From Flavobacterium sp. CG_23.5 (GTDB lineage: Bacteria; Bacteroidota; Bacteroidia; Flavobacteriales; Flavobacteriaceae), in the NCBI RefSeq assembly GCF_017875765.1, contig NZ_JAGGNA010000001.1, positions 1,077,001 through 1,141,000 of the forward strand: 64,000 bases of DNA, written 5' to 3'. Below are positions 29,563-55,499 of this stretch, piece after piece. Position 1 is the first letter of the stretch. Every line of letters begins with the position of its first letter. A program made the translations under genes and the position numbers. Under the pieces are notes generated by a model. That model was not told the origin of the DNA. It did not search any database and was given only the letters and a program-made list of their open reading frames with translations.

Positions 29563-29759
29563 AAGATATTGTTTTGTGCAAAAATAAGGGTTATTTGTAT
29601 AGTTTTCACAAAAATAAAAGGCTAGGTTGCTAATCACTATTCCGTTTTAAATACTAATGGTAATGCTTTTTGATATTGTATAATTTGTAAAAAATAAATT
29701 ACATTTGTTTAAACTCAGATTAAGATTTTTCACCCATCATACAAATATTACTTAATTTA

Positions 29760-37687: not shown

Positions 37688-37688
37688 A

Positions 37689-39887: not shown

Positions 39888-40054
39888 CTTGTAATATAAG
39901 AAAAAATTAAACAATTTAGAGTCCAATTTATAAAAATAACAGGATAATCAACAATTCTGTAATTAATTATAAGAATTATTGAGTTTATGAAAGATGATAA
40001 TGATGCTTCCTAAAAAGCAGTAAAAATCATAGAATACACATATCCGTAACCCTT

Positions 40055-40450
40055 TTGTCAAACACAATTCCTCTTCAAAACGTTAACACAAATTATGCAT
40101 CGCAAACTATAGACAATTGTGAAAGCAATCCAATTTTGATAAACGCCCGAATTTCAACAGATGCAGATTGTGATTTAACAATTGATAATTCATCATTGTC
40201 ATATCCTAAATTTTTCACCCCAAACGGAGACAGTTTCAACGATATTTGGAAAATCAAATTTTCTAATTTGGAAATAGGTTTAACCGTTAAAATATTTGAC
40301 CGCTATGGTAAATTCATCAAAGAATTGATACAAAATGCCACTTGGAATGGAACTTTTAATGGACAAGAACTTCCTGCAACTGACTATTGGTTTGTGGTTA
40401 CCAGAGCCAATGGAAAAGAATACAGAGGACATTTTAGTTTGAAACGATAA
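40055..40450 (+). pseudogene. Orphan T9SS type B sorting-domain tail
   Basis: Only the last part of an Ig-like repeat (NTNYASQTIDNCES) and the complete type B sorting domain (YPKFFTPNGDSFNDIW to GHFSLKR) remain. The frame has only a TTG for a start and no signal peptide, so it cannot be exported by itself. It is the 3' end of a lost gene. The preceding region (39930-40054) shows no coding continuation. The last 181 bases match the end of the gene at 29760 with three differences. Confidence 0.85.
40270..40450 (+). repeat. 181-bp repeat, copy 2
   Basis: Same sequence as 32936-33116 except for three substitutions. The two copies are in direct orientation and enclose the second T9SS gene and the sucrose operon. 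Confidence 0.9.
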
Positions 40451-40477
40451 AGATTCATCGTTTCAAACTTCGTAAAA

Positions 40478-41131
40478 TTATACCTGTGTTTTAATTTCTT
40501 TAAATTTCACATAAGAATAAACCATCGGAACGATCACAATTAGCCCAATTATAAATAAGAAAACAACTAGATTAATTTCATTTGGAAGAATAAAAGCTGC
40601 AACCATAATCAGTAAGCCGCCAATAAACCATAGTTTGCTTGCAAAAGTATGCGTAGATTTCCAAACTTCTTTATTTTCTATAGTCCATGGTGTTCGAATG
40701 CCTAAAAAATAATTCGGTTGAATCACTTTAAAATAATTCCCCATGACTACAATTAAAATTCCAATAAGGGCAAAAATAAAATTGGGTTTAGCAATAGTTT
40801 GACTTTGTGATGAATACACAATAAACATAGCCAGAAAAGACATAAACAAAACTAGAGCAAATTTGAGTTGATAATACTTCCCTCCCATTATATCCATTCG
40901 TTTTTTAGGATCGATTTTAGGAATTATAAGCATCAAAAGGTAGGTCAGAACCGGTAAAAGAAATACCATTCCTATCAAAGTATATTTATCTCCCCAATGA
41001 TCAATTTCTCCTTTGGAATTCCAATGCGTTGGAATTTTTTCCGGAAGTTTATTCCACAAAAATGTCAAATAAATGAAAGGGATTAAAACAATTCCGATAA
41101 TAGGTAATTCTCTTCTTAAAGTTAAGTTCAT
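40478..41131 (-). CDS. sdpI: SdpI-family membrane protein (DUF1648 + SdpI)
   Basis: An inner membrane protein of 217 residues. The N-terminal DUF1648 part has the hallmark WNKLPEKIPTHWNSKGEIDHWGDK, and the C-terminal SdpI domain contains PNYFLGIRTPWTIENKEVWKSTH. About six membrane segments are visible. I use the Met at 41131 (MNLTLRREL), which lies four bases after the sdpR stop; the longer frame would overlap sdpR. In Bacillus, SdpI gives immunity to the SdpC toxin and sequesters SdpR. Whether this homologue protects against a toxin is unknown, and no sdpABC genes are seen. Confidence 0.88.
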   Translation of the reverse strand: MNLTLRRELPIIGIVLIPFIYLTFLWNKLPEKIPTHWNSKGEIDHWGDKYTLIGMVFLLPVLTYLLMLIIPKIDPKKRMDIMGGKYYQLKFALVLFMSFLAMFIVYSSQSQTIAKPNFIFALIGILIVVMGNYFKVIQPNYFLGIRTPWTIENKEVWKSTHTFASKLWFIGGLLIMVAAFILPNEINLVVFLFIIGLIVIVPMVYSYVKFKEIKTQV

Positions 41132-41135
41132 GTTT

Positions 41136-41390
41136 TTATTTTTTAAAAGTTGATATCCATTGCAAAACATCTTCCATTATAGTAGTGTTAATAGAATAAA
41201 TTACGAATTGCCCTTTTTTCTCTGAAGTAATTAAATCCGCTTGTTTTAAAATATCCAGATGATGCGAAATACTGGGTTTTGAAATATTAAAATGAGCCGC
41301 GATTTCACCGGCAGTCAAATCTTTAATTTTCAACAACTCTAATATTTCCCTCCTCGTAGCATCGTTTAAAGCTTTAAAAATGGCATTCAT
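41136..41390 (-). CDS. sdpR: SdpR-like ArsR-family autorepressor
   Basis: A winged-helix repressor of 84 residues: ALNDATRREILELLKIKDLTAGEIAAHFNISKPSISHHLDILKQADLI, with no metal-binding Cys motif. It is followed after four bases by sdpI, giving the classical sdpRI operon. A perfect inverted repeat 19 bases before its start codon is the obvious autoregulatory operator. Confidence 0.92.
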   Translation of the reverse strand: MNAIFKALNDATRREILELLKIKDLTAGEIAAHFNISKPSISHHLDILKQADLITSEKKGQFVIYSINTTIMEDVLQWISTFKK

Positions 41391-41408
41391 TTTCGTTAGT
41401 TAATTATA

Positions 41409-41430
41409 TATTTAGACAAATGTCTAAATA
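41409..41430 (-). promoter_or_regulatory. Palindromic operator of sdpRI
   Basis: TATTTAGACA-AA-TGTCTAAATA: perfect 10-bp arms with a 2-bp spacer, 19 bases before the sdpR start, placed where it would block the promoter. Confidence 0.75.
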
Positions 41431-41470
41431 CTTTTTCAATTTAGCAAATATTTGTTCCAATATTTTTTGG

Positions 41471-41733
41471 TAATTTAGCATCAAATAAATTAAAATATGC
41501 CAACCGACTGCATCAGCTATCAAAATTCAGGATATTTCTCTTCTTTGATGAATGATTATTTAGATCAAAAAAGTAATTTACATTCTTTGTACCACAGATT
41601 TCCCAAACTAGAAAATTTTGAAGATCAAATAATTGAAAAGCAAAAAAACTACGATAATCATAACAGATCCGTTTTAGTTTCCGCTTTGCAAAAACAATAT
41701 TTGAATATTGAAGCTTCTGTTTTGACCAAATAA
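41471..41733 (+). repeat. Direct repeat, left copy (bshC upstream region and 5' end)
   Basis: 263 bp matching 52445-52707, including 26 bases before the ATG. By hand alignment of the coding part there are about 23 differences in 234 bases (about 90% identity), concentrated at the distal end. It bounds the sigma factor/SusCD/ggt cassette. Confidence 0.9.
41497..41733 (+). pseudogene. bshC: Truncated bshC (first 78 codons)
   Basis: It reads MPTDCISYQNSGYFSSLMND and continues in parallel with the intact bshC at 52471 up to SVLTK, where a TAA replaces the next Gln codon and the similarity ends. The Rossmann core and all catalytic regions are missing. The start region and its likely promoter (TAATTTAG) are retained, so a short peptide may still be made. 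It is the left remnant of an insertion or duplication event. Confidence 0.9.
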
Positions 41734-41863
41734 CATATGATTTATGTTTTTCAAAAACAAAATTCATAATATTATTTTTTTTTATTTTTATACAATAAAG
41801 AAAATAACTAAAAATCTAACATTAAAACTCATTAATGTATTTTTTAATCACCGCTAAAAAGTA

Positions 41864-41871
41864 TAAATTTG
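41864..41871 (+). promoter_or_regulatory. Candidate -7 box of the ECF sigma gene
   Basis: TAAATTTG fits TAnnTTTG, 43 bases before the TTG start. The inverted repeat at 41875-41890 begins three bases downstream. Confidence 0.45.
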
Positions 41872-41874
41872 AAA

Positions 41875-41890
41875 AACTTAACCTTAAGTT
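41875..41890 (+). promoter_or_regulatory. Inverted repeat at the ECF sigma promoter
   Basis: AACTTAA-CC-TTAAGTT, perfect 7-bp arms, located at the expected transcription start. Possible operator or autoregulatory site for the sigma/FecR cassette. Confidence 0.5.
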
Positions 41891-41914
41891 AATATAAAAA
41901 CTAACCCATTCAAT

Positions 41915-42523
41915 TTGAAAACCCAGTTTGAACTCAAAATTGTACCTGACGACTCCGTTATTTGGAGGAATCTTAAATTGGGTGACGAGAAGGCTTTTTC
42001 GTTACTTTTTGAAAAATATTATGATCATTTGGTGCGTTATGGAAACTCTTTGTCTCGCTTTTCAGATAAAGTACAAGATTGCGTTCAAGACGTGTTTACG
42101 GATGTTTGGGTATACAGGCAGACTTTAAATGACTCCGTTGTAGTTAAAGCTTATTTGCTGTCAAGTGTGCGCAAAAGAATTGCAAGGCTTCAAGATCGCG
42201 AACGTATTTTTCGTAAGACTACATCAGTTGACTCCATTCAATTCCTCCTTGACTTTTCTGTTGAACATCAACTCATCGTTGATGAATCAACTGCCGAGAA
42301 AGTATTACATCTCAACAAACTTATAAATGGCTTACCCCCAAGACAAAAAGAAGCCTTGTATCTTCGCTATCATCAAGGTCTAAGTGTCGAGCAAATTGCT
42401 GACATGCTAGAGGTTAATTACCAATCTGCAAACAATTTATTGCACCGTGCCTTGTTGAACCTTCGTAAAGAATGGAAAGGGAATATCTCACTACTTTTAA
42501 TACTCTCGACGAATGTTATTTAG
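41915..42523 (+). CDS. ECF-type RNA polymerase sigma factor
   Basis: Sigma-70 family, extracytoplasmic-function type, 202 residues. Region 2 reads DEKAFSLLFEKYYDHLVRYGNSL, then VQDCVQDVFTDVWVYRQ; region 4 reads LPPRQKEALYLRYHQGLSVEQIADMLEVNYQSANNLLHRALLNLRK. The only usable start is TTG (41915). The FecR-type anti-sigma factor 94 bases downstream and the SusC with an N-terminal STN domain after it give the classic Bacteroidetes trans-envelope circuit: ligand binding to SusC releases the sigma factor, which then turns on the SusCD genes. Confidence 0.92.
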   Translation: MKTQFELKIVPDDSVIWRNLKLGDEKAFSLLFEKYYDHLVRYGNSLSRFSDKVQDCVQDVFTDVWVYRQTLNDSVVVKAYLLSSVRKRIARLQDRERIFRKTTSVDSIQFLLDFSVEHQLIVDESTAEKVLHLNKLINGLPPRQKEALYLRYHQGLSVEQIADMLEVNYQSANNLLHRALLNLRKEWKGNISLLLILSTNVI

Positions 42524-42617
42524 CAGATTATTTAATTAAAAATAAAAATAAGTTATAATTTACTGAGTATATAATAAAAGACCTGTCCTCTTTGTTTTTG
42601 TAATCCATAATATCTTG

Positions 42618-43733
42618 ATGCAAGAACGTAACAATTATACCGAAATAGAAGAATTTTTAGCAGATGAGTCATTCCACCTGTGGATCAGATTCGCTGATGA
42701 CCAAAAAAAATGGGAAGAATGGACTTTAGAAGATCCCAAACGCGCGAAATTAGTAGAGGAAGCGCGATTGTGGTTATTAGCAATGAATGTTCCTGAATCG
42801 ACGATGTCCAAAATAACTGTTAACGATGCTTTAGAAAGCACTTGGGCAAAAATTAAAAACAAGGAAAAAAATAACAACCAAATTCAAAAATCTACAATAA
42901 AGCTTTGGAACAGCAATTGGATTAGAGGAGCGGCAGCACTTCTGCTGTTTGGTTATATATCTACTTGGATATACAATGATTATTATTTTTCAAACAATAA
43001 TTCTAATATTTACTACGAACTTATTAATAAAAATAGAGAAGGTTTAGTAGAACAAACAAACAATTCAAACAATCCACAGATAATAACTTTATCTGATGGA
43101 AGTTCGGTCTTATTACAACCAAACAGCAAGTTGAGTTATCCCAAAATATTTGTTGGAAACGAACGCAAAGTATATCTCTCTGGAGAGGGTTTTTTTGAAA
43201 TCAGTAAAAATCCAGAGAAACCATTTTTCGTCTTTGCTAATGAGATCGTTACCAAAGTGGTTGGGACCAGTTTTAGGATAAAAGCATACACCAATCAACC
43301 AAATGTAGAGGTATTAGTTCGCACAGGCAAAGTAAAAATCAAGTCGAATCAAATAATTGCAAATTCAGAGGAAGAAGAAGTTGTTTTGCTTCCTAACCAG
43401 GCATTAAGGTTTGTTCGTAAGGGCCTTACTTTTCATAAAATTACTGATATAACCAAAGATGAAACTTTGGCTCATTCGGTCGGAAATATTGAACATTTGA
43501 GTTTTGAATTTACTGATATTCCTGTTTCGCAAATTTTCAGTACTATCGAACAAGCTTATTTGGTAAATATTGATTTTCCAAAAGAGAAGTTAAAAAACTG
43601 TCATCTTACAACTTCACTAAATGATCAACCATTGCCAGAAAAATTAAAAATTATTTGTAAAAGTCTTGGAAACAATTCGAATTACGAAATGAACGGAAAT
43701 CAAATAATCATTACATCAGACGGATGTAATTAA
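42618..43733 (+). CDS. FecR-family anti-sigma factor
   Basis: An inner membrane anti-sigma/sensor protein of 371 residues. The cytoplasmic N-terminal domain (about 1-90, EEFLADESFHLWIRF) would hold the sigma factor. A single membrane segment is at about 98-114 (WIRGAAALLLFGYISTWIY). The periplasmic FecR domain contains ITLSDGSSVLLQPNSKLSYP, RKVYLSGEGFFEISKNPEKPFFVFANE, VVGTSFRIKAY and VEVLVRTGKVKI. A C-terminal DUF4974-type region (LSFEFTDIPVSQIFSTIEQAY) completes it and would contact the STN domain of SusC. The ATG at 42618 is preferred over the TTG just before it. Confidence 0.92.
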   Translation: MQERNNYTEIEEFLADESFHLWIRFADDQKKWEEWTLEDPKRAKLVEEARLWLLAMNVPESTMSKITVNDALESTWAKIKNKEKNNNQIQKSTIKLWNSNWIRGAAALLLFGYISTWIYNDYYFSNNNSNIYYELINKNREGLVEQTNNSNNPQIITLSDGSSVLLQPNSKLSYPKIFVGNERKVYLSGEGFFEISKNPEKPFFVFANEIVTKVVGTSFRIKAYTNQPNVEVLVRTGKVKIKSNQIIANSEEEEVVLLPNQALRFVRKGLTFHKITDITKDETLAHSVGNIEHLSFEFTDIPVSQIFSTIEQAYLVNIDFPKEKLKNCHLTTSLNDQPLPEKLKIICKSLGNNSNYEMNGNQIIITSDGCN

Positions 43734-43768
43734 TTCTAAATTGCCTATGTAAAATTGTGCATAAAAAA

Positions 43769-43798
43769 GCGTCGAAAATGCTATAACACTTTCGACGC
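43769..43798 (+). promoter_or_regulatory. Hairpin between fecR and susC
   Basis: Perfect 9-bp stem GCGTCGAAA / TTTCGACGC with a 12-nt loop, followed by an A-rich rather than T-rich stretch. It may be a processing, attenuation or mRNA-stabilising structure separating the regulator genes from the highly expressed SusCD genes. Confidence 0.55.
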
Positions 43799-43887
43799 AA
43801 TAAAAATTCAACAAACCCTCTGTAAAGGATTTATTGAAATGTTTTTCTTACACCTTTAAACAGTATTAATCAAAACAAACCAAAATT

Positions 43888-46800
43888 ATGAAAAAACCTG
43901 TTGTTAAACAACGATTACTTCTTCGAATCATGAAAATAACATTAATTCAGTTTGTCTTGGCACTTGTCTTTTCAAGTGTTACCATGGCAAACAGTGTGAA
44001 AGGACAAAGAAAATTGGACACGAAGATTACCATTGCCTTTAACAATTTGAGTTTAGATAACGCCCTATCAAAACTTGAAAAATCTGCACATGTTAAATTT
44101 TCTTACAATTCAAGAATGGCTCATCTAGATCAAAAAGTAACCATAGAAGCTAATGATGAACTATTATCAAGTATACTTAACCGAATTTTGAAGCCACTGA
44201 ATATTATCTATGCTGAAATAAGCAATCAAATTGTGTTGCAAAAGGAAATCTTGCCTGGAGATGGATTTTCTGATAGCGATAATAAAGAATCGGTGATTCA
44301 AAACTTATTGACACCCATCATTACGGGTAAAGTAATGGATGAAAAGGGGATTCCTTTACCAGGAGCAACTATACTGGCTAAAGGTACTAATATTGCTGTA
44401 ATAACAGATGCAAATGGTAACTTCAGAATAGATATGCCAAAAAACAGCACGAAATTAATTATTACTTTTATTGGAATGGAATCCCAAGAAGTTGCCATTG
44501 GAAATTATCCGCTCACTATTATTTTAAAAGAAACAGGTCAAAAATTAGAAGAAGTAGTTGTAACTGCTTTTGGTATTAAACGTAAAAAAAACTTATTGCC
44601 TTATGCCGCCCAGCAAATTAGTGGTGATGATGTGAATAAAACTCGACTAAACAATATAGCATCAGGTCTTTCAGGAAAAATATCTGGTTTACAAATTACA
44701 CAAGGAAATTCTGTTGGAGGATCCGTAAATGTAGTAGTGAGAGGGAATAAATCCTTATCAGGAAATAATCAGGCCCTATTTGTTGTAGATGGAGTCCCTG
44801 TAGATAATTCAAATACTAATTCAGATTCTCAAAAATCCGGAGCAGGTGGATATGATTATGGTAACGCTGCGGCAGATATTAATCCGGACGACATTCTCTC
44901 TATAAATGTTTTAAAAGGAGCAGCTGCTTCGGCCTTGTATGGTTCACGCGCTGCTAATGGAGTCATAATGATAACGACTAAAAAGCCAAAAACTGGATTA
45001 GGAATTACTATGAATACTGGGATAACTGTTGGATCAATTGATAAATCTACTTTCGTAAAATACCAACAAGAGTATGGTGCCGGTCGTTCTATTGCTCAAG
45101 ATAAAGATGGATTTCTGTATTTTGATGCCAATGGCGATGGTATTAAAGATCTAGTTGTTCCTACTTTTGCTCCACGTTCTTGGGGACCACGTTATGACCC
45201 TAATTTAATGGTGTATGACTGGGAATCATTCGATCCTGCATCTCCAAATTATCAAAAACCAAAACCTTGGATTGCTCCGAAAAACGGACCAGAAAATTTT
45301 TACGAAACAGCTATTTCTAGCAATCATAACATCATGATTGATGGAATGGTAGCAGATAAAGGCTCTTTTAAAATCGGATATACGAGAAATGACGAAAGAG
45401 GAGCGCTACCAAATAGTAGCGTGCTGAAAGATATTGTGAATCTTGGTGCTAGCTTCAATATAACAAGTAAATTAGTGGCGAGTGGATTAGTGAATTATTC
45501 TCAAGTTAATGGAAAAGGGAGGTATGGAACAGGATACGATAGCGGACGGAATGTCAATAGTAATTTCCGCCATTTTAACCAAACTAACGTAGATGTTTCC
45601 GAACTAAGGGATGCTTATTTTAGAAATAGAAAAAACGTAACTTGGAACTGGGCAGACCCAACTAAGCTAACCAATTTAGTTCCGGCTTTTTCAGATAATC
45701 CTTATTGGGTAGTTTACGAAAATTATCAAAATGACAACAGAAATAGGGTAATTGGAAACGTATCCCTTAATTACAAAATTACTGACTGGCTTGATCTTTT
45801 AGGTAGAGTTTCAGTAGACACATACCATGAAGCTCAACAAGAACGAAGAGCAGTTGGAAGTGCAGGTGTTTCATCTTATTCCCGTTTTGACAGAGATTAT
45901 AATGAAACAAACTATGATTTACTGGCCACAGTTAATAAAAAAATAAATGAGGATTTTGGATTTAATGGATTGGCCGGAGTAAACATCAGAAGAAATACGG
46001 TATCTTCTGTTTTTTTACAAACAACTGGTGGATTAGTTATACCGAATCTTTATGCTATTTCTAATTCTAAAGGAATCATTCCTGCCCCGGTAGAATCTTA
46101 TCAATCAAAAGCCGTTGATGGAGTATTTGGAGGAGTTACTTTTAGCTATAAAGATTTTCTTTTACTCGATGGAACCCTGCGTCGAGACAAATCATCTACG
46201 TTACCTGAAAATGCAAATGCTTATAATTATTATGCTATTTCAGGCAGTTATGTATTTTACCATCATTTACAAAAATTAAATTGGTTATCATCTGGAAAAG
46301 TCAGAGTAAACTATGCAACTGTAGGAAATGATGCAGCATTTGGAAGTCTTAAAGATGTTTACGTTAAACCAAATCCATTTGACAGCACCCTGCTCTTCTC
46401 TTTACCTAATACTAAAAACAACAGTGAATTAAGACCTGAGAATACTATTAGTAAAGAAATTGGTTTAGAAATGTCTTTCTTTAATAATAGATTAGGTTTT
46501 GATGCGTCCTATTACCATACTAACACCGTAGACCAAATAATTCCTGTTGCTACATCGACAGCAATCGGTTATTCAAGTAAATTCTTAAACGCAGGTGATA
46601 TTGAAAATAAGGGTATTGAAGTTTCATTATATGCGACGCCTGTTAAAAGCAACGATTTTTCTTGGAATGTAAATGTAAACTTCACCAGAAATAGAAATAA
46701 AGTATTATCGCTTTATAACGATAGTAAAAACCTGCAATTAGGTACTTTTCAAGGTGGGGTAAGTTTAAATGCATCAATTGGTAAACCTTATGGAGAATTA

Positions 46801-47451
46801 CAATCCGTAACTTATGAAATGTTAAATGGAGAAAGATTAATCAAACCAAACGGATTATATCAATTCACTTCTACAACTTCTAATGTTATTGGAAATGTAA
46901 ATCCTGATTGGATAGGTGGTTTAAGCAATAGCTTCAGATATAAAAACTTAACTTTAAGTTTCTTAATTGATGTTAAAAAAGGAGGACAATTATTTTCTCT
47001 AGATATGTATTATGGAACTATCTCTGGTATTTTACCCGAAACGGTTGGATTAAATGATCTTGGAAATCCAAAACGTGATCCAGTTGCAAATGGCGGTGGT
47101 GTAATTTTACCAGGCGTAACAGCAAACGGTCAACCCAATACAAATAGAGTAACAATTGTTTCAGGAACAAGTTCGTATCAAGCACAGTCAGATTTTGTTT
47201 ATGATGCTGGTTTTGTAAAACTGAGAGAATTAGCTATTTCATATTCACTTCCTAAAACAATTATTTCGAAAATGAAAGCAATAAATGACATCGAATTTTC
47301 ATTGACTGGTAGAAATTTATGGCTAATCCATAAAAATGTACCTTATGCTGATCCGGAAGAAAACTTATCATCAGGAAATATTTCAGGCTATCAAAGTGGC
47401 TCCTACCCTACTGTACGTGCTATTGGCTTTAATGTTAAAATAAAATTATAA
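43888..47451 (+). CDS. SusC/RagA-type TonB-linked outer membrane transporter with STN domain
   Basis: A 1187-residue TonB-dependent transporter. After the signal region (KITLIQFVLALVFSSVTMANSVKGQ) comes an STN domain (about 45-115, FNNLSLDNALSKLEKSAHVKFSYNS), which signals to FecR. Next is a carboxypeptidase-D-regulatory-like domain (about 143-212, ITGKVMDEKGIPLPGATI). The TonB box region is LEEVVVTAFGIKRKKN. The plug has GLSGKISGLQITQGNSVGGSVNVVVRG and LFVVDGVPVDNSN. The 22-strand barrel follows and ends IGFNVKIKL. It works with the SusD-like lipoprotein 10 bases downstream. The ligand is unknown; the linked gamma-glutamyltransferase suggests peptides or gamma-glutamyl compounds. Confidence 0.95.
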   Translation: MKKPVVKQRLLLRIMKITLIQFVLALVFSSVTMANSVKGQRKLDTKITIAFNNLSLDNALSKLEKSAHVKFSYNSRMAHLDQKVTIEANDELLSSILNRILKPLNIIYAEISNQIVLQKEILPGDGFSDSDNKESVIQNLLTPIITGKVMDEKGIPLPGATILAKGTNIAVITDANGNFRIDMPKNSTKLIITFIGMESQEVAIGNYPLTIILKETGQKLEEVVVTAFGIKRKKNLLPYAAQQISGDDVNKTRLNNIASGLSGKISGLQITQGNSVGGSVNVVVRGNKSLSGNNQALFVVDGVPVDNSNTNSDSQKSGAGGYDYGNAAADINPDDILSINVLKGAAASALYGSRAANGVIMITTKKPKTGLGITMNTGITVGSIDKSTFVKYQQEYGAGRSIAQDKDGFLYFDANGDGIKDLVVPTFAPRSWGPRYDPNLMVYDWESFDPASPNYQKPKPWIAPKNGPENFYETAISSNHNIMIDGMVADKGSFKIGYTRNDERGALPNSSVLKDIVNLGASFNITSKLVASGLVNYSQVNGKGRYGTGYDSGRNVNSNFRHFNQTNVDVSELRDAYFRNRKNVTWNWADPTKLTNLVPAFSDNPYWVVYENYQNDNRNRVIGNVSLNYKITDWLDLLGRVSVDTYHEAQQERRAVGSAGVSSYSRFDRDYNETNYDLLATVNKKINEDFGFNGLAGVNIRRNTVSSVFLQTTGGLVIPNLYAISNSKGIIPAPVESYQSKAVDGVFGGVTFSYKDFLLLDGTLRRDKSSTLPENANAYNYYAISGSYVFYHHLQKLNWLSSGKVRVNYATVGNDAAFGSLKDVYVKPNPFDSTLLFSLPNTKNNSELRPENTISKEIGLEMSFFNNRLGFDASYYHTNTVDQIIPVATSTAIGYSSKFLNAGDIENKGIEVSLYATPVKSNDFSWNVNVNFTRNRNKVLSLYNDSKNLQLGTFQGGVSLNASIGKPYGELQSVTYEMLNGERLIKPNGLYQFTSTTSNVIGNVNPDWIGGLSNSFRYKNLTLSFLIDVKKGGQLFSLDMYYGTISGILPETVGLNDLGNPKRDPVANGGGVILPGVTANGQPNTNRVTIVSGTSSYQAQSDFVYDAGFVKLRELAISYSLPKTIISKMKAINDIEFSLTGRNLWLIHKNVPYADPEENLSSGNISGYQSGSYPTVRAIGFNVKIKL

Positions 47452-47461
47452 ACTAAGAATC

Positions 47462-48895
47462 ATGAAAAAAAGATATATAACTACAGTACTACTTGGTATT
47501 TTAACAATTAGTGCCTGTACAGAAAATATTACTCGTTTTAATGAAGAGACAAAACTTGCTAGTAGCGTTCCCGCCGGAAGTTTGTTTTCAAATTCAGTAA
47601 AAACACTCTCCGACGGATTGGCTTCAGCGAGTGTCAATGTAAATATATTTCGCCATTTTGTAAATCATTGGGCTCAAGCCGTCATTCAGGAAGAAGCAAA
47701 TTTTGATTACATTACACGAGCAATTAATGATGCTTGGTGGACTCGTATGTATCGTGATGTATTAAACGATTTAAAAGAAAGTGCACGAATTATAAATAAA
47801 GATGCGACTTTAAATCCGATGCAGAAAACAAATCAATTAGCTATGATTGATATTATGCAGGTATACACTTTTAATATTTTATTGACTACTTTTGGTGATA
47901 TCCCTTATACTCAATCTCTAGATGACCAAAAGTTATTTCCTATCTATGATGATGCAAAAACTATCAATGCAGATTTAATGCAAAGATTAGATAACGACAT
48001 CAATAAATTAAGTACAAGTGCCCCAGGATTTACTACTACAGAAGATATCCTCTTCCAAGGATCTGTATCTAAATGGATTTCTTTTGCTAATTCACTGCAA
48101 GTAAGAATGGCAATGACTTTAGCGGATGTAGATAATGCAAAAGCAAAAGCAGCTTTTGAAAAAGCAGAACCAATGGCTATTAATTCTATAGCTAATGATA
48201 CCTTTATTAAATATTTTAGTGCTACACCAAATAACAATCCATTATATGATCAATTAGTATTAGCAAACCGCACGGATTATATAGCTGCAAAAGATTTAAT
48301 GGATATATTAAATAATTTTTTAGATCCTCGCAAACCTGGATTTTTTGGTGTAAATAATGTGGGAGAATATGTTGGCGGAATAATGGGAGCACCAAGTGAT
48401 TATCCAAAAATGTCTAAACCAAGTGCTCGTGTTGCTGCACCAAGCGCACCTAATACATTAATAGATTATGTGGAAATGGAGTTTTATAGAGCTGAAGCTA
48501 AAGAACGCGGATATACTGTATCGGGAACAGCTGAATCGCATTATAATAACGCCATAAAAGCTTCAATAATCTATTGGGGAGGAACAAGCTTGCAGGCAGA
48601 TACTTATTTATTAAGACCAAACGTAGCTTATTCAACTGCGACTGGCGGATGGAAACAAAAAATTGGTTTCCAAAAATGGATTGCATTATACAATCGTCCA
48701 TTTGAAGGATGGCTAGAAGTTCGTCGATTAGATTTCCCTAAGTTAACAGTTCCAGTAAATGCTATATCTGGATTTCCAAACCGACTAAAATATCCTTCAA
48801 GTGAACAACAGCTAAATGGAGCAAATTATAGTAAAGCGGCGGCAAAAATTGGTGGTGATAAAAGTGAAACAAAATTATTTTGGGACATCTTCTAA
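47462..48895 (+). CDS. SusD/RagB-like nutrient-binding lipoprotein (SusD-like 2 type)
   Basis: A surface lipoprotein of 477 residues that forms the lid over the SusC barrel. The lipobox is LTISAC with Cys19. The helical, TPR-like scaffold is visible in WWTRMYRDVLNDLKESARIINKD, NILLTTFGDIPYTQSLD and VEMEFYRAEAKERGYTVSGTAESHYNNAIKASI; the ending VRRLDFP-KLT, FPNRLKYPSSEQQLN is typical of the SusD-like family 2 that is often paired with STN-containing SusC proteins. It starts 10 bases after susC. Confidence 0.93.
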   Translation: MKKRYITTVLLGILTISACTENITRFNEETKLASSVPAGSLFSNSVKTLSDGLASASVNVNIFRHFVNHWAQAVIQEEANFDYITRAINDAWWTRMYRDVLNDLKESARIINKDATLNPMQKTNQLAMIDIMQVYTFNILLTTFGDIPYTQSLDDQKLFPIYDDAKTINADLMQRLDNDINKLSTSAPGFTTTEDILFQGSVSKWISFANSLQVRMAMTLADVDNAKAKAAFEKAEPMAINSIANDTFIKYFSATPNNNPLYDQLVLANRTDYIAAKDLMDILNNFLDPRKPGFFGVNNVGEYVGGIMGAPSDYPKMSKPSARVAAPSAPNTLIDYVEMEFYRAEAKERGYTVSGTAESHYNNAIKASIIYWGGTSLQADTYLLRPNVAYSTATGGWKQKIGFQKWIALYNRPFEGWLEVRRLDFPKLTVPVNAISGFPNRLKYPSSEQQLNGANYSKAAAKIGGDKSETKLFWDIF

Positions 48896-48917
48896 TTAAT
48901 AAATAGACAAAAGACAT

Positions 48918-50600
48918 ATGAAAAAGTCAATTCTAATCCTATTCCTATTATCAACAAAACTCCTGTTTGCCCAAGATCGTTTAACAGGAAAAAACTTTGC
49001 CACTAGATCTGAAGTAATTGGGCAACACGGAATGGTGGCGTCAAGCCAACCATTAGCCACCCAAATTGGAATAGATATTTTAAAAAAAGGAGGGTCTGCT
49101 GTCGATGCAGCAATAGCCGTTAATGCTGCATTAGGTCTTATGGAACCAACAGGTAGTGGTATTGGTGGTGACCTGTTTGCAATTGTATGGGAGGCCAAAA
49201 CCAAAAAACTATATGGCTTAAACGCAAGTGGACGATCGCCAAAAGCACTGACTTTAGATTATTTTAATAAAAATAACATAAAGCATATTCCCCCTAGTGG
49301 TCCTTTACCAGTAACTGTTCCGGGCTGCGTTGATGGTTGGTTCGAATTACATAATAAATTCGGAAAAATACCAATGAAGGACATCTTAAATCCCAGTATA
49401 AAATACGCCGAGGAAGGCTTTCCAACTACCGATTTAATAGCTTATTATTTACAAATTACATTGAAAAAATATATGAAAATGTATCCAAATGTAAAAGAAA
49501 CATATACGGTTGATGGTAAGTTGCCTCAAAAAGGAGATATTACTAAAAACATTTTCTTAGCAAATACTTATAAAAAAATTGCTAAAGGTGGAAGGGACGC
49601 TTTTTATAAAGGAGATATTGCGAGAGAAACTGCTAAATTTATTCAAGATCAAGGAGGCTTCTTAGCTTACGAAGATTTCACTACTCATAAATCTGATTGG
49701 ATTGAGCCGGTTTCAACAAATTACAGAGGTTATGATGTTTGGGAATTACCCCCTAATGGCCAAGGTATATCTACCTTACAAATGTTAAATATTATTGAAG
49801 GGTATGATTTTACTAAAATACCTTTTGGTAGTGCTGAACATTTGCATATTGTAAACGAAGCTAAAAAACTTGTTTTTGAAGACCGAGCAAAATACTATGC
49901 GGATCTAGATTTTATGAAAATTTCAGTAACTGATTTGTTATCAAAAGAGTATGCATCACAACGTAGATCATTAATCAATCCTGACAATGCCGGTACATTT
50001 AAAGCTGGAAAAGAAAGTAATGGTGGTACTGTTTATTTAACTGTAGCTGATAAAGACGGTAACATGGTTTCACTAATACAAAGTAACTACAGAGGAATGG
50101 GTTCTGGAATGGTACCACCTAAATTAGGTTTTATGCTTCAAGATCGAGGGGAATGTTTCAATATTGCCGAAGGAACACCAAATTCATATGCGCCCCAAAA
50201 AAGACCTTTTCATACTATAATCCCTGGTTTTGTAACAAAAAAAGGAATTCCATTTATGAGTTTTGGCGTGATGGGTGGCGATTTTCAACCTCAAGGACAT
50301 GTACAGATATTAATGAATATGATTGATTTTGGAATGAACCTACAAGAGGCAGGCGATGCACCTAGATTCGAACATATTGGTTCTACCAATTTTACAGGCG
50401 AATTAGCGGAAGGTAAAGGAGAAATTCTGATTGAAAATGGATTTGACTTCGAAGAAATAAAAAAATTAATTCAAAAAGGACACAAAGTTGGATTTGGTGG
50501 CTATTATGGCGGCTACCAAGCAATCATGTTTGACTCGGAAAGAAAAGTATATTTTGGGGCTTCGGAAAGTAGAAAAGATGGTCAGGCTACTGGGTATTAA
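48918..50600 (+). CDS. ggt: Gamma-glutamyltransferase, exported
   Basis: An N-terminal nucleophile hydrolase that cleaves gamma-glutamyl bonds (glutathione, gamma-glutamyl peptides) or transfers the gamma-glutamyl group. The 560-residue precursor has a signal peptide (KKSILILFLLSTKLLFAQ), so it is periplasmic or secreted. The N-terminal signature is GMVASSQPLATQIGIDILKKGGSAVDAAIAVNAALGLMEPTGSGIGGDLF. Autocleavage would occur before Thr371 (NGGTVYLTVADKDGNMVS), where classical enzymes have TTHxSV, a variation typical of a broader GGT-like group. The glycine pair near the C-terminus (FGVMGGDFQPQGH) is present. Co-directional with SusCD (22-base gap), so the protein probably feeds on or prepares the transported ligand. 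Confidence 0.92.
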   Translation: MKKSILILFLLSTKLLFAQDRLTGKNFATRSEVIGQHGMVASSQPLATQIGIDILKKGGSAVDAAIAVNAALGLMEPTGSGIGGDLFAIVWEAKTKKLYGLNASGRSPKALTLDYFNKNNIKHIPPSGPLPVTVPGCVDGWFELHNKFGKIPMKDILNPSIKYAEEGFPTTDLIAYYLQITLKKYMKMYPNVKETYTVDGKLPQKGDITKNIFLANTYKKIAKGGRDAFYKGDIARETAKFIQDQGGFLAYEDFTTHKSDWIEPVSTNYRGYDVWELPPNGQGISTLQMLNIIEGYDFTKIPFGSAEHLHIVNEAKKLVFEDRAKYYADLDFMKISVTDLLSKEYASQRRSLINPDNAGTFKAGKESNGGTVYLTVADKDGNMVSLIQSNYRGMGSGMVPPKLGFMLQDRGECFNIAEGTPNSYAPQKRPFHTIIPGFVTKKGIPFMSFGVMGGDFQPQGHVQILMNMIDFGMNLQEAGDAPRFEHIGSTNFTGELAEGKGEILIENGFDFEEIKKLIQKGHKVGFGGYYGGYQAIMFDSERKVYFGASESRKDGQATGY

Positions 50601-50666
50601 CTGACTTTTTTTAAAAAGAGTATAGTATTGAACAACAGGAATTAGCATTATATAAATTTTAATACA

Positions 50667-51755
50667 ATGAAAGTTAAAAACTTATTTACATTATTCATAT
50701 TATTTTTTGTTGCTAGTCACAATAGCAATGCTCAAATGAAATTCCCATCACCAATTGAGGGAGATTATTTAATTAAAGATTTTGTCTTTAAAAGTGGTGA
50801 ACATATTGATAAACTCAAACTTCATTATACAACAATTGGAAAACCAACCAAAGATATAAATGGAAAAATCAACAATGCGGTTTTGATAATGCATGGCACT
50901 ACTGGAAGCGGAACTAACTTTTTAAGCGAACAGTTTGGAGGAAATTTGTTTGAAAAAGGACAATTACTGGATGCTACAAAATATTTTATCATTCTACCTG
51001 ATGACATTGGTCATGGTAAGTCATCTAAGCCAAGTGATGGCATGAGGATGAAATTTCCTAAATACAATTACGATGATATGGTATTAGTGAACTATAAATT
51101 ACTAACAGAACATTTAAAAGTAGATCATCTCCGTCTAGTGATGGGTACATCAATGGGGGGAATGCACACTTGGGTTTGGGGCTACACTTATCCAGATTTT
51201 ATGGATGCTTTGATGCCGTTAGCTAGTTTACCCGTGGAAATAGCTGGCAGGAATCGTATTCAAAGAAAAATGGCTATTAAATTAATAGAGATGGATTCGA
51301 AGTGGAAGAATGGTGATTATGTTAAACAACCAAAGGAAGGAATGACTGGCGCAATACTGTCACTTATGTTTATGGTTAGTAGCCCTTTGCAATGGCAATT
51401 AAATGCTCCTACTAGAGAAAAAGCAGAAATCATGATGGATAAAACCTTAAATAGATACTTGTCACTATTAGATGCTAATGATCTAATTTATGCCTTTGAT
51501 TCATCTAGAGATTACAATCCGCAACCTCATTTATCCCATATTAAAGCACCTTTAATTGCTATAAATTCAGCTGATGATCAAGTAAATCCTCCTGAATTAG
51601 GTATAATGGAGAAAGAAATCAAAAATGTTAAAAATGGCAAATACATATTATTACCAATAACAGATAAAACGTCAGGCCATGGAACGCATTCAAATCCTAA
51701 AATTTGGGGACAATATCTAAAAAATCTACTTAGAGAGTCGGAACCAATATACTAA
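50667..51755 (+). CDS. Exported alpha/beta hydrolase related to homoserine O-acetyltransferase
   Basis: Alpha/beta-fold protein, 362 residues, with a signal peptide (KVKNLFTLFILFFVASHNSNAQ). The MetX-like features are LHYTTIGKP, NAVLIMHGTTGSGTNF (oxyanion region), the nucleophile Ser162 in MGTSMGGMHTWVWG, an Asp in INSADDQVNPPE and a terminal His in SGHGTHSNPKIWG. True MetX acts in the cytosol on acetyl-CoA; export argues for a hydrolase, such as an esterase or amidase working with GGT. It is the last gene of the cassette (66-base gap after ggt), followed by a terminator about 290 bases downstream. Confidence 0.88.
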   Translation: MKVKNLFTLFILFFVASHNSNAQMKFPSPIEGDYLIKDFVFKSGEHIDKLKLHYTTIGKPTKDINGKINNAVLIMHGTTGSGTNFLSEQFGGNLFEKGQLLDATKYFIILPDDIGHGKSSKPSDGMRMKFPKYNYDDMVLVNYKLLTEHLKVDHLRLVMGTSMGGMHTWVWGYTYPDFMDALMPLASLPVEIAGRNRIQRKMAIKLIEMDSKWKNGDYVKQPKEGMTGAILSLMFMVSSPLQWQLNAPTREKAEIMMDKTLNRYLSLLDANDLIYAFDSSRDYNPQPHLSHIKAPLIAINSADDQVNPPELGIMEKEIKNVKNGKYILLPITDKTSGHGTHSNPKIWGQYLKNLLRESEPIY

Positions 51756-52444
51756 TTAAAATTCAATAGCAATCTTATCCTTTGAGGAAATCTTTTGCAT
51801 TTATCATACGCTTGTTCTTTCAAAAATTATTTTTTCTCGCTTTTTACGAAAAAAAACGAATTAAGTAAATAAACCAACTTAAATTTGTTCTGGCACTAGA
51901 TAAATATTTAATCGATACAAAAAGTGTAAAAGTAAAGTAAGAAAAGAAACGTTTAAGATTACTTATTCTAACTCAATATAAACTTTTACCAGTGAGTCAG
52001 GTAATTTTAGAAATACTTCTCTAAATAAATTTTAAAAAAATACAAAAAAGGTTGCTCTTTAAAAGGCAACTTTTTTTTTAGGCAATTTCTGGATAAGCTA
52101 TCTACATTATTTTTCTTTTAAAACTAATAGATTAATTTTTAAAAAATCAAATGATATAACATTCTTTTTCATCCATATTTGAGAGAAGTCACATTATGGA
52201 AGCAAATGATGAGAACTTTCCTTTTGTGAAATAACAAACTTCGAGAACATAAATTAATTATGATAATTATATTTCACTAAATGCAAAAGCACTTTAGTAA
52301 TTGTTATTTAAATGGAAGTAAAATAATAAAAGTATGCAACGTAAACTGCTTTGAAAAAACAGTGGAAATTGATTAAAAATAAAAAATAAAAATTCAGCAT
52401 TTCACAAAGCTTTCTTAAACTAAAAATTATAGCTTTACTTTTCA
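51756..52444 (+). other. Intergenic region right of the cassette
   Basis: About 690 bp, AT-rich, no supportable gene. It contains one terminator (52044-52079). I see no integrase, transposase remnant or inverted terminal repeats that would explain how the cassette arrived. The right bshC repeat begins at 52445. Confidence 0.6.
52044..52079 (+). terminator. Terminator right of the cassette
   Basis: Stem GTTGC / GCAAC extended by A-T pairs, followed by nine T on the plus strand. Confidence 0.8.
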
Positions 52445-52707
52445 TAATTTAGCATCAAATAAATTTCAATATGCCAACCGACTGTATCAGCTATCAAAAT
52501 TCAGGATATTTTTCTTCTTTGATGAATGATTATTTAGATCAAAAAAGTAATTTACACTCTTTATACAACAGATTTCCCAAACTAGAAAATTTTGAAAATC
52601 AAATCCTCGAAAAACAAAAAAACTACAACAATCATAACAGATCCGTTTTAGTTTCCGCTTTGCAACAACAATATGCTTCTATTTCATCTTCTGTTTTAAC
52701 GAAACAA
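52445..52707 (+). repeat. Direct repeat, right copy (intact bshC 5' end)
   Basis: Counterpart of 41471-41733. The shared sequence begins 26 bases before the ATG and ends at about codon 79 of bshC. It includes the likely bshC promoter (TAATTTAG). Confidence 0.9.
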
Positions 52708-54063
52708 AATATCGAAGTTTTAGCGCTTCCCAACACATTCACCGTAACAACGGGCCACCAGCTAAATTTATTCAGCGGACCTTTGTATTTTTTGTACAAA
52801 ATTATTTCGACCATAAATTTAACGAATGAATTAAAAGCAAAATATCCTTCTTATAATTTTGTTCCCATTTATTGGATGGCAACCGAAGATCACGATTTTG
52901 AAGAGATTAATTATTTCAATTTCAAAGGAAAAAAATTCAGATGGAACACCGAAAGCACCGGTCCTGTTGGCAGATTATCGACTAAAGGCTTAGAGGATTT
53001 CTTTGACGTATACGCACTTGAATTGGGTTCCAGTACAAACGCAGAAGCGATAAAAAAATTATTTAAAGAATCTTACCTAAATCACGATAATTTAGCGGAT
53101 GCTACAAGATATTTGGCCAACGCACTTTTTGGATTATACGGTTTGGTAATTCTGGATGCAGATAATTCCGACTTAAAACGAGCTTTTATGCCTTTTGCAA
53201 AAGAAGAATTATTGCATCAAACTTCACATCAATTAGTCCTAGAAACAGCTGAAAAATTAAAAGAGTATACCGTTCAAGTTAATCCCCGCGAGATAAATTT
53301 ATTTTATATTGAAGATAATATACGAGAACGAATTGTTCTTGAAAATGGAAAATACAAAGTAAACCACACCAAGATTGAATTTTCGGAAACTGAAATTTTA
53401 GAATTACTGGAAAATCATCCGGAGAAATTCAGTCCAAATGTGATTATGCGTCCGTTGTATCAAGAAGTAATTTTACCCAATTTATGTTACATTGGCGGAG
53501 GCGGAGAAATTGCATATTGGCTGGAACTAAAATCTTTCTTTGATGCTGCAAAAGTAACTTTTCCAATACTTTTATTAAGAAACTCAGTACTGCTGGCCAC
53601 CGAAAAACAAGCTAAAAAAGCGGAGAAGTTACACTTAAATTGGACTAATCTATTTTCTAAACAATCCAATTTAATCAACAGTAAAACCAAAGAATTATCG
53701 GAGTTTCCAATAGACTTAACACCTATTAAAGAGCAGTTACGAAAACAATTTGAAGCGCTTTTTGAAATGGCAAATCATACCGATGAATCATTCATGGGAG
53801 CAGTAAAAGCACAAGAAGTAAAACAAACCAAAGGATTAGAAAATCTGGAAAAACGTTTGCTTAAAGCACAAAAAAGAAAATTAAGCGATGTTTTGCAACG
53901 CATCACCGATTTACAAAATGATTTGTTTCCAAATCAAAGTTTGCAGGAACGTCAAGCAAATTTTTCCGAATTTTATTTAGAAAATGGAGACAATCTGATT
54001 CCAATGATTATTAATCAATTGAAACCTTTGGAACAAAATTTCGATATAATTTTATTGCCATAA
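52471..54063 (+). CDS. bshC: Bacillithiol synthase BshC (cysteine-adding enzyme)
   Basis: Final step of bacillithiol synthesis, thought to join cysteine to glucosaminyl-malate; bacillithiol is the low-molecular-weight thiol of Bacteroidetes and Firmicutes. The chain has 530 residues, the normal length. Characteristic regions are VTTGHQLNLFSGPLYFLYKIISTINL, PIYWMATEDHDFEEINYF, YGLVILDADNSDLKRAF and IGGGGEIAYWLELKSFFD. A C-terminal coiled coil (about 440-500, LENLEKRLLKAQKRKLSDVLQRITDLQNDLFP) is present. Its 5' end is duplicated 11 kb upstream. Confidence 0.96.
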   Translation: MPTDCISYQNSGYFSSLMNDYLDQKSNLHSLYNRFPKLENFENQILEKQKNYNNHNRSVLVSALQQQYASISSSVLTKQNIEVLALPNTFTVTTGHQLNLFSGPLYFLYKIISTINLTNELKAKYPSYNFVPIYWMATEDHDFEEINYFNFKGKKFRWNTESTGPVGRLSTKGLEDFFDVYALELGSSTNAEAIKKLFKESYLNHDNLADATRYLANALFGLYGLVILDADNSDLKRAFMPFAKEELLHQTSHQLVLETAEKLKEYTVQVNPREINLFYIEDNIRERIVLENGKYKVNHTKIEFSETEILELLENHPEKFSPNVIMRPLYQEVILPNLCYIGGGGEIAYWLELKSFFDAAKVTFPILLLRNSVLLATEKQAKKAEKLHLNWTNLFSKQSNLINSKTKELSEFPIDLTPIKEQLRKQFEALFEMANHTDESFMGAVKAQEVKQTKGLENLEKRLLKAQKRKLSDVLQRITDLQNDLFPNQSLQERQANFSEFYLENGDNLIPMIINQLKPLEQNFDIILLP

Positions 54064-54117
54064 ACTTAAATTTTCATCAAGACACGAAGTACTATTAACC
54101 ATAACCAACCAAAAAAG

Positions 54118-55389
54118 ATGACCAAAGAACGTTTAATTTCACTGGATACATTTAGAGGATTTACAATTTTATTTATGACAATTGTAAATAATCCTGGAAG
54201 TTGGACTTCGATTTATCCCCCTTTGGAACACGCGGAATGGAATGGTTGCACCCCCACCGATTTGGTCTTTCCTTTCTTTATTTTTATAATGGCGGTAGCC
54301 ATATCTTTTGCAATGCCAACTAAACAGTTTGACAGCGCTACTTTTAATAAAATAACAATACGTGGATTACGGATTTTTTGTTTGGGATTATTTCTTAATT
54401 TTTTTGGTAAAATAGAAATTTTGGGTCTGCAAGGAATTCCATTATTGTTGAGTCGATTAGTAATAACTATTGGAGTAAGTTATGCGCTTTTGGGCAATTT
54501 CAGTCTGAAAATCAAGACCTATTTGACACTTTTTGTTTTTGTTGTCTTATTGTTTCTAGCTTACAGCGGTATCGAAGCGTATCAAGAAGTTAGAATTCCC
54601 GGAGTATTACAACGAATCGGGATTGTGTATTTTTTTGTTTCTCTTTTGTACTTAAAAACGAATCAAAGAACACAACTTCTAACCGCAGTATCACTATTGC
54701 TGCTGTATTGGGGATTAATGGCTTTTGTACCCGTTCCGGGAATTGGAGCAGCAAACTTTGAAAAAGGGACCAACTTAGGTGCTTGGTTAGATAGTGTACT
54801 ATTAGAAGGACACATGTGGATTTTTTCAAAAACTTGGGATCCCGAAGGCATATTAAGTACAATTCCCGCAATTGCTTCAGGAATAATCGGGCTACTTATT
54901 GGACAATTGATCAACAGTTCTTTACCAAAGTTGGAAATTGTCAAAAAGATGGCTATAGTAGGTTTAACAGTTACATTATTGGGGCTACTTTGGAACATCG
55001 TGTTTCCTATCAACAAATCACTTTGGACCAGCTCCTATGTTTTATATACTTCTGGATTGGCAATACTGTGTTTAACCGTTTCATTTTATTTAATTGAAGT
55101 TGCAAATTATAAAAATTGGACAAAGCTATTTTTAATTTGGGGAGTAAATCCAATGGTTGTATTCTTTTTCTCTGGTATTATTCCGCAAGGATTGAGAATG
55201 ATTCAATTTCAAAACCCTCAAATACCAACAGAACAAATTAATCTTCAAAAATATCTGTATACTTTTTGGATTGCACCATTTTTCGATAATCCTTTATTGG
55301 CATCCTTGGTCGGAGCTTTAATTTATGTTGGAATTTGGTCTTTCATTTTGTGGTTATTTTATAAAAACAAGCTGATTTTTAAAGTATAA
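54118..55389 (+). CDS. HGSNAT-like membrane acyltransferase (DUF5009/DUF1624-type)
   Basis: A polytopic inner membrane protein of 423 residues with about 10-11 membrane segments. It resembles heparan-alpha-glucosaminide N-acetyltransferase and the bacterial NagX/YeiB group: [22 protein letters not shown], then a His in [28 protein letters not shown]-type motif (the likely acetyl-carrying His), and [14 protein letters not shown]. Probably transfers acyl groups from cytosolic acyl-CoA to sugars or wall components across the membrane. It follows bshC by 54 bases and may be co-transcribed. The substrate is unknown. Confidence 0.85.
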   Translation: [423 protein letters not shown]

Positions 55390-55464
55390 ATAACAAAAAT
55401 AGCACTTATAACAAATAAAAGCCTCATAACTGCTGATTTAATAATTTCAATTCAAAAAAAAGTC

Positions 55465-55472: not shown

Positions 55473-55499
55473 CACAAAATTTAAAAAAAGAAAATAAAA

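What the first reader, a model, noticed from the sequence alone, without database searches (positions are those of the whole stretch)
41471..52707. A 10-kb regulated uptake cassette bracketed by duplicated bshC 5' ends
The first 78 codons of bshC plus 26 upstream bases occur twice in direct orientation (41471-41733 and 52445-52707), about 90% identical by hand alignment. Between them lie exactly one ECF sigma factor, FecR, SusC, SusD, GGT and hydrolase set, all on the plus strand. The simplest reading is that the cassette entered within or beside bshC together with a bshC 5' segment from another lineage, which rebuilt an intact gene on the right and left a stub on the left. The 10% divergence argues against a recent tandem duplication in this strain. 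No integrase or transposase is visible, so homologous recombination with incoming DNA is a good candidate mechanism.
Basis: partly seen in the sequence, partly recalled or inferred. Interest (0 to 1): 0.7.

Follow-up and report, generated by a model that had tools for sequence, protein, structure and literature searches.

The report
Uptake cassette inserted beside Flavobacterium bshC
A set of genes for sensing and taking up a nutrient was spliced in front of a conserved gene in a Flavobacterium chromosome without visible help from a mobile element, leaving a broken copy of that gene's start behind, and the set itself is a hybrid that still carries a fossil of the genes it replaced.

Summary
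In detail: a 274-nt direct repeat (89% identical) of the bshC leader and first 78 codons brackets one sigma/FecR/SusC/SusD/GGT/hydrolase set. F. xinjiangense, one of the two nearest relatives found, has the empty site: sdpI-sdpR-intact bshC. G417, the other, has a different small insert there.

The two coding ends are sisters (97/90); their leaders are not (p-AU 0.0003): the left is xinjiangense-like, the right closest to strains carrying a related cassette directly before bshC. Likely mechanism: one-sided homologous recombination at the bshC start plus an illegitimate left junction, after the split from F. xinjiangense but not very recently.

Beyond the finding, the cassette is a chimera. Sigma, FecR and SusC residues 1-221 resemble the cassette that relatives carry before bshC; SusC barrel, SusD, GGT and hydrolase resemble another operon. 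A decayed DUF4302 tail of the displaced payload survives before bshC (29.1 bits; best of 200 shuffles 6.5). The radical-SAM-bshC interval varies from 59 bp to about 10 kb. Each element has precedent; the two-level exchange is notable.

The parts
27367..29637 (-). Radical SAM gene, conserved left border of the variable radSAM-bshC interval
   Evidence: Pfam PF04055 E 1.4e-10; found upstream of bshC on the minus strand in 61 of 81 loci with at least 2 kb upstream
40478..41390 (-). sdpI (40478-41170) and sdpR (41136-41390), native left flank
   Evidence: PF13630 and NF033789; 40613-41738 is 84.3% identical to F. xinjiangense
41391..41470 (+). native bshC leader kept in front of the stub
   Evidence: 41401-41489 93% identical to F. 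xinjiangense; leader tree groups it with xinjiangense/G417 97/100
41471..41738 (+). bshC 5' stub, 26 nt leader plus 78 codons and TAA (left repeat copy)
41739..41864 (.). left junction zone: bshC homology fades, similarity to the upstream side of type-B sigma genes not yet begun
41915..42523 (+). ECF sigma factor
   Evidence: TIGR02937, PF08281; 62-80% to sigma of related cassettes
42615..43733 (+). FecR anti-sigma factor
   Evidence: PF04773, PF16344; matches at E<=1e-60 in 117 of 398 genomes drawn from the genus, the window's own included
43888..44550 (+). SusC residues 1-221: signal peptide, STN and carboxypeptidase-like domain, of the bshC-locus (type-B) kind
   Evidence: STN PF07660 E 3.4e-5, 24.0 bits, below its curated cut-off of 28.4
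44551..47451 (+). SusC residues 222-1187: TonB box, plug and barrel of the GGT payload
   Evidence: 80-96% to G274 in every window after residue 225; 15-26% to type B except residues 330-360 (56%)
47462..48895 (+). SusD-like lipoprotein (PF12771)
   Evidence: 84% to G274, 66% to G019
48918..50600 (+). gamma-glutamyltransferase
   Evidence: TIGR00066 above cut-off; 87% to G274
50667..51755 (+). alpha/beta hydrolase, PRK06489 family
   Evidence: NF005071 above cut-off; 83% to G274
51878..52020 (+). decayed 3' end of a DUF4302 gene: fossil of the displaced payload. 51937-52020 is well supported (one stop inside); 51878-51955 in another frame is weak on its own
   Evidence: profile hit 29.1 bits, E 1.7e-8 over six frames of the window; the next best (5.5 bits) is the other frame of the same place, then 5.3 bits elsewhere; best of 200 shuffles 6.5 bits
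52044..52077 (+). terminator-like hairpin shared with type-B loci
   Evidence: 86-90% over 30-35 nt to G304 and G164; folds at -12.7 kcal/mol, z -2.8; not in the list of the consensus terminator scan, which found no more than shuffles
52398..52470 (+). bshC leader closest to type-B strains
   Evidence: 68 of 76 identical to G045 including ATG; nearest rows in the leader tree are four type-B rows, but no starred branch ties it to them
52471..54063 (+). intact bshC; its first 78 codons are the right repeat copy
   Evidence: TIGR03998 above cut-off; body groups with xinjiangense and G417

Best explanation
A cassette that had previously sat directly upstream of bshC in another Flavobacterium lineage was taken into a chromosome with sdpI-sdpR-bshC. 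On its right it recombined homologously at the bshC promoter/start. On its left it was joined illegitimately inside the recipient's own bshC, near codon 79. The join kept the recipient's leader and first 78 codons as a stub and left an intact bshC behind the incoming leader. Before that, in a donor ancestor, the cassette's payload had been exchanged at the TonB-box border of susC: sigma, FecR and the SusC signalling head stayed, while the barrel, SusD and enzymes were replaced by a GGT/hydrolase set. The 3' tail of the old last gene (DUF4302) and its terminator remained. The probable function is sensing and import of a gamma-glutamyl or peptide substrate. Shown: empty site, unequal leader origins, chimera, fossil. 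Inferred: order of events, the exact join, the donor, the function.
For: Empty site in F. xinjiangense. Equal flank divergence of 84-85%. Leaders of different origin, p-AU 0.00026; bshC body with xinjiangense and G417 95/91; coding copies sisters 97/90. None of 14 fetched loci with a type-B cassette near bshC shows a second bshC start, as far as the fetched stretch reaches. Among 398 genomes searched with the first 90 residues of BshC, 385 matched and 5 had two hits: the window's own plus G153, G157, G197 and G233, whose pairs are pieces of one locus or lie on two contigs. Chimeric SusC. DUF4302 fossil. A different insertion at the same spot in G417 with a 28-nt leader repeat. No recombinase family above cut-off among the eight proteins scanned.
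Against: The donor is not sampled; the window's sigma/FecR/STN does not group tightly with any bshC-adjacent cassette, and the right leader is only nearest to, not firmly joined with, type-B leaders; cassette-less strains share its side of the tree. The left join cannot be checked for microhomology. The right copy has a longer branch than the stub (0.086 against 0.043), unexpected if the stub is simply a decaying duplicate. A clade of the right coding copy with G045 and G304 is not rejected (p-AU 0.185). A left join downstream of the right crossover needs two sister chromosomes or a circular intermediate.
Confidence: 0.7

Rival explanations
1. One reading: the whole right 5' coding segment is donor DNA from a sister lineage, with the crossover downstream of codon 78; the 10% divergence is donor-recipient divergence and the insertion could be young.
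For: Right copy has the longer branch; its codon 72 (TCA) matches G417 while the stub and xinjiangense have GAA; no stop or gap in codons 1-78 of the stub.
Against: Left and right coding copies are sisters 97/90; it needs a donor very close to the recipient in bshC yet type-B-like in the leader. Both copies have H29, which none of the 8 outgroups has, but L036, P0002, P0006 and P0018 have it too, so it is weak evidence.
Confidence: 0.17
2. Reverse polarity: the cassette was resident before bshC and incoming sdpI-sdpR-bshC 5' DNA was added on its left.
For: Type-B cassettes stand before bshC in several relatives.
Against: F. xinjiangense and G417, nearest in the bshC body, both have sdpI-sdpR before bshC; left and right flanks show equal divergence to xinjiangense.
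Confidence: 0.07
3. Site-specific or transposon insertion, or a simple tandem duplication in this strain.
For: Direct repeats at the ends; a 26-nt 85% inverted match just inside both ends.
Against: No integrase or transposase above cut-off; the inverted match is nearly all A and T and one of ten such pairs reported in the region; the leaders of the two copies differ in origin, which a tandem duplication alone does not give.
Confidence: 0.03

Closest known systems
Homology-facilitated illegitimate recombination (Acinetobacter, Pseudomonas stutzeri, S. pneumoniae, E. coli)
   Same: Foreign DNA anchored by homology at one end and joined illegitimately at the other (PMC3240628 abstract and outline; PMC2884548 passages)
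   Different: Here the join duplicates part of the anchor; the process is inferred from one genome, not observed
Sequential displacement of T6SS effector modules in Vibrio cholerae (PMC5361080, passages read)
   Same: Modules exchanged at a fixed locus by an anchored insertion, as those authors propose; remnants of displaced modules stay behind the newcomer
   Different: Here the cargo is a nutrient receptor set; the retained parts are a sigma/FecR/STN signalling head and a dead gene tail, not immunity genes
FecIRA-type cell-surface signalling SusCD loci of Bacteroidota (recalled as a kind)
   Same: ECF sigma, FecR, SusC with N-terminal STN region, SusD, enzymes
   Different: Signalling head and transporter body have separate ancestries, joined inside susC
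Type-B cassette (SusC, SusD-like_3, TIGR04549 zinc metallohydrolase, DUF4302) near bshC in Flavobacterium (my name)
   Same: Related sigma/FecR/STN, same place, similar bshC leader and hairpin
   Different: Payload is SusC barrel, SusD-like_2, GGT, hydrolase; only a DUF4302 tail of the type-B payload remains

Membership tests
Product of homology-facilitated illegitimate recombination | homologous junction at one end | tested here: met
   right leader nearest type B, bshC body with xinjiangense and G417
Product of homology-facilitated illegitimate recombination | non-homologous, short-homology junction at the other end | tested here: inconclusive
   stub stops and type-B similarity starts about 130 nt later; donor sequence not available
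Product of homology-facilitated illegitimate recombination | inserted DNA absent from the empty-site relative | tested here: met
   F. xinjiangense sdpR to bshC is 105 bp
FecIRA-type SusCD signalling locus | ECF sigma and FecR next to susC | tested here: met
FecIRA-type SusCD signalling locus | STN signalling domain on the receptor | tested here: inconclusive
   PF07660 E 3.4e-5, 24.0 bits, below its 28.4 cut-off in the window; above it in type-B G304 (35.1 bits), which is 60-70% identical over residues 30-120; listed for 7 of the 12 nearest homologues
FecIRA-type SusCD signalling locus | substrate-dependent induction through FecR | not testable with these tools
   needs expression data
Integrative mobile element | integrase or transposase within the insert | tested here: not met
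   Pfam and NCBIfam on the eight proteins of the region; one sub-threshold DUF772 match on the sigma factor; shorter overlapping ORFs were not scanned
Integrative mobile element | att or terminal inverted repeats at the ends | tested here: inconclusive
   only an A/T-rich 26-nt 85% inverted pair, one of ten reported; no tRNA near, the three of the window lie at 7194-7495
Tandem duplication in this strain | both copies and their upstream sequence share one origin | tested here: not met
   leader clade rejected, p-AU 0.00026

The most novel reading that the evidence does not exclude
The radSAM-bshC interval of Flavobacterium is a receptor exchange locus. A fixed signalling head (sigma, FecR, STN domain) stays, while transporter barrel, SusD and enzymes are swapped by recombination at the TonB-box border of susC and in bshC. 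This would let one sensing circuit be re-targeted to new substrates without any mobile element.
Probability: 0.4. Interest if true: 0.62.

Novelty: new variant of a known kind. Interest (0 to 1): 0.45.

Why it matters
It gives a readable fossil record of how a regulated nutrient receptor set was built: an exchange inside susC that kept the sensor, then transfer beside a core gene that kept the core gene intact. If general, it would explain how Bacteroidota re-wire sigma/FecR circuits to new transporters and why some intervals between core genes vary so much without integrases. It also suggests that a gene stub can mark the recipient side of such an event.

Tried and rejected
Tried and rejected: (1) Tandem duplication: spoken against by the leader tree. 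(2) Mobile element: no recombinase above cut-off, no tRNA nearby, no convincing terminal repeats. (3) Codon-level decay test of the stub: left-right 8 synonymous and 9 non-synonymous codons, ratio 1.12, within the 0.44-1.46 range of the other pairs printed, so it cannot tell a decaying from a functional copy. (4) Tree of the sigma-FecR-SusC head to name a donor: the window falls with G222, G216 and the cassettes far from bshC (92/92, not starred), not with the bshC-adjacent ones; no donor named. (5) Plasmid origin: 161 plasmid records match SusC, all under 60%; the best GGT match is 63.6%. (6) Close payload relatives outside the genus: of 279 genomes drawn from the family (the window's included), 52 had a SusC match at E<=1e-280 and the highest identity listed besides the window's own was 52%. 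(7) Other short bshC starts: 70 short proteins including the window's own; only 10 of the 70 lie on contigs of 10 kb or more, so most may be cut by contig ends. P0002 (75 aa, 86% to the stub, 307,089-bp contig), P0017 and P0018 (644,334 and 232,948 bp) may be other stubs or frameshifted genes; their DNA could not be fetched. (8) GC content does not mark the payload out (33.3-36.0% against 33.2% for the window). (9) The consensus terminator and promoter scan found no clear excess of sites over shuffles and did not list the hairpin at 52044. (10) Literature: searches on sigma/FecR/SusC, SusC transfer, Bacteroidetes hotspots, TonB receptor extensions, GGT with SusD, and bshC in Flavobacterium listed 1, 0, 15 of 282, 12 of 39, 0 and 4 papers. 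Judged by title and start of abstract none describes this locus; those papers were not opened.

Full report
What is there. The window belongs to a 3.67-Mb single-contig genome (G000, window at C1:1077001-1141000). Its nearest named relatives by BshC are Flavobacterium species. The left copy encodes the first 78 residues of BshC and then TAA; the right copy opens an intact 530-aa BshC. Between them, all on +, are ECF sigma, FecR, SusC, SusD-like_2, GGT and an alpha/beta hydrolase.

Empty site. The left flank 40613-41738 is 84.3% identical to that genome and the right flank 52436-59179 is 85.3%, so both flanks show the same divergence. The second near relative, G417, also has sdpI-sdpR before bshC, but with a 209-aa ORF of no Pfam family between them. 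There, a short piece of the bshC leader (28 nt at 86%) is repeated on both sides of the ORF. This is another insertion at the same spot. Among 398 genomes drawn from the genus, 385 had a hit to the first 90 residues of BshC and 5 had two: the window's genome, two with overlapping pieces of one locus (G157, G197) and two with hits on two contigs (G153, G233).

Three trees with three answers. The rows are 36 relatives that I chose from the 140 bshC starts held. For the 237-nt coding ends, left and right are sisters (97/90). Forcing the left copy with F. xinjiangense alone is rejected at p-AU 0.039, left with xinjiangense plus G417 at 0.017, right with those two at 0.037. Not rejected are all four together (0.308), right with G045 and G304 (0.185) and left with G045 and G304 (0.184). 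For the rest of bshC (1353 columns) the window groups with xinjiangense and G417 (95/91). For the 85-nt leaders, the left one groups with xinjiangense and G417 (97/100), while the right one lies on the far side of a 99/100 branch. Its nearest rows there are four type-B strains, but the same side also holds cassette-less strains such as G029 and G289, and no starred branch ties it to type B. A common clade of the two leaders is rejected at p-AU 0.00026. In windows, the right leader at -80..-40 is 90% identical to G045, 85% to G304, 70% to G029 and 48% to xinjiangense. The simplest reading is a crossover near the start codon: foreign leader, native coding sequence. The two coding copies have since diverged by 10%, against about 15% to xinjiangense. 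Against this simple reading, the right copy, not the stub, has the longer branch (0.086 and 0.043), so I leave 0.17 for a crossover further in, with a closely related donor. Codon counts do not decide it.

The cassette is a chimera. In G318, G189, G160 and G444 the same cassette is there with sdpI-sdpR between it and bshC (families named on G304; G045 read from its ORF list, where the SusD frame is in two pieces). These 14 loci were chosen because FecR or its cassette lay close to bshC on one contig, so 14 is a lower bound; L061 (strain 14A) looks like another. FecR matches at E<=1e-60 occur in 117 of 398 genomes, the window's included. All 14 have this payload, which I call type B, and none shows a GGT or hydrolase match. 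The window resembles type B up to position 44558 and the GGT operons of G274 and G019 from about 44540-44551 on. SusC windows before residue 225 are 53-89% identical to type B (16-28% at residues 120-145); those after are 80-96% identical to G274 and, except at 330-360 (56%), 15-26% to type B. The switch lies at the TonB box (motif recalled), so the STN and linker domains are of one origin and plug and barrel of another. G274 has the payload with a SusC that lacks the STN head; its contig ends 444 nt upstream. G019 has it with a distant sigma and FecR (29% and 38%). Neither genome has this FecR at E<=1e-60. Conversely, in F. xinjiangense the same FecR kind (74%) stands before a single receptor without an adjacent SusD, about 72 kb from bshC. 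Heads and payloads are therefore combined both ways. Twelve protein clusters with 72-79% identity over the first 420 residues carry the same head-barrel combination; the seven of them aligned in full are 81-88% identical. The chimera is thus probably older than this insertion and not made in this strain.

A fossil of the exchange. Between the hydrolase and bshC, 51937-52020 reads, with one stop, as the end of a DUF4302 gene; a piece just before it (51878-51955) continues the likeness in another frame, weakly. A profile of 15 DUF4302 ends scores 29.1 bits (E 1.7e-8) over the six frames of the window. The next best score, 5.5 bits, is the other frame of the same place; the best elsewhere is 5.3 bits, and the best of 200 dinucleotide shuffles 6.5. 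It is followed by a hairpin shared with G304, G164 and G045 and by the bshC leader. G274 similarity ends at 51803, before the fossil. Remnants on both sides of the payload suggest that the exchange took place in a cassette already standing before bshC.

A variable interval. A radical SAM gene on the minus strand is found upstream of bshC in 61 of 81 loci with at least 2 kb of upstream sequence (54 of 67 with about 10 kb; loci, not genomes, some doubled). The distance in the 61 is 59 bp to 10.2 kb, nine of them 127 bp or less. The ORF next to bshC varies (largest clusters 44, 17, 10, 10 and 7 loci). The interval is thus a place where cargo comes and goes between two conserved genes. No integrase was seen in the window's cassette; the other genomes' cargo was not scanned for one.

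Mechanism. Anchoring by homology at one end with illegitimate joining at the other is known (PMC3240628, abstract and outline; PMC2884548, passages). It was proposed for T6SS modules in Vibrio cholerae, where remnants of displaced modules stay behind the newcomer (PMC5361080, passages). Here the join lies inside the recipient's bshC past the crossover, so part of the anchor was duplicated; two sister chromosomes or a circularised incoming fragment would allow that (inference). Circularisation and single crossing-over is named in the PMC3240628 abstract as a fate of linear DNA in E. coli. I could not choose between them.

Function. Sigma, FecR and an STN-like SusC head suggest cell-surface signalling; GGT and hydrolase begin with signal-peptide-like N-termini by eye. 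Import of gamma-glutamyl compounds such as glutathione is a guess from the GGT. A link with bacillithiol synthesis by BshC is possible but the position is explained without it. No expression data were available.

Verdict. What changes is that the coding repeat is most likely native while the leader and cassette are foreign, that the event is not very recent, and that the cassette is itself the product of an earlier payload exchange whose fossil is still legible.

Noticed in passing
35355-40451: A sucrose cluster (PfkB kinase, GH32-like, sucrose-phosphate synthase/phosphatase, minus strand) lies between a T9SS (CHU_C) gene end at 35213 and a 131-aa CHU_C fragment at 40055-40450. The fragment's last 247 nt are 91% identical to the end of the T9SS gene at 33116 (98% over the last 180) and 88% to the one at 35213. 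Perhaps another cargo bracketed by a duplicated gene end.
   Followed up: partly
L167:10045-10674 (G417): 209-aa ORF without Pfam family inserted between sdpR and bshC, with a 28-nt bshC leader repeat on both sides.
   Followed up: partly
L210 (F. xinjiangense, G271:C18:330000-347000): Same sigma/FecR kind with a single STN-bearing TonB receptor and no adjacent SusD, about 72 kb from bshC; the window's genome has one such FecR only, in the cassette.
   Followed up: partly
54118-55389: DUF5009-type membrane gene between bshC and ndk is present in some relatives and absent in others, so the right side of bshC varies too.
   Followed up: no
7194-7495: Three tandem tRNA-Glu genes on the minus strand.
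   Followed up: no
P0002, P0017, P0018: Short bshC starts (75, 101 and 105 aa) on long contigs of other genomes; may be independent stubs or frameshifted genes.
   Followed up: partly
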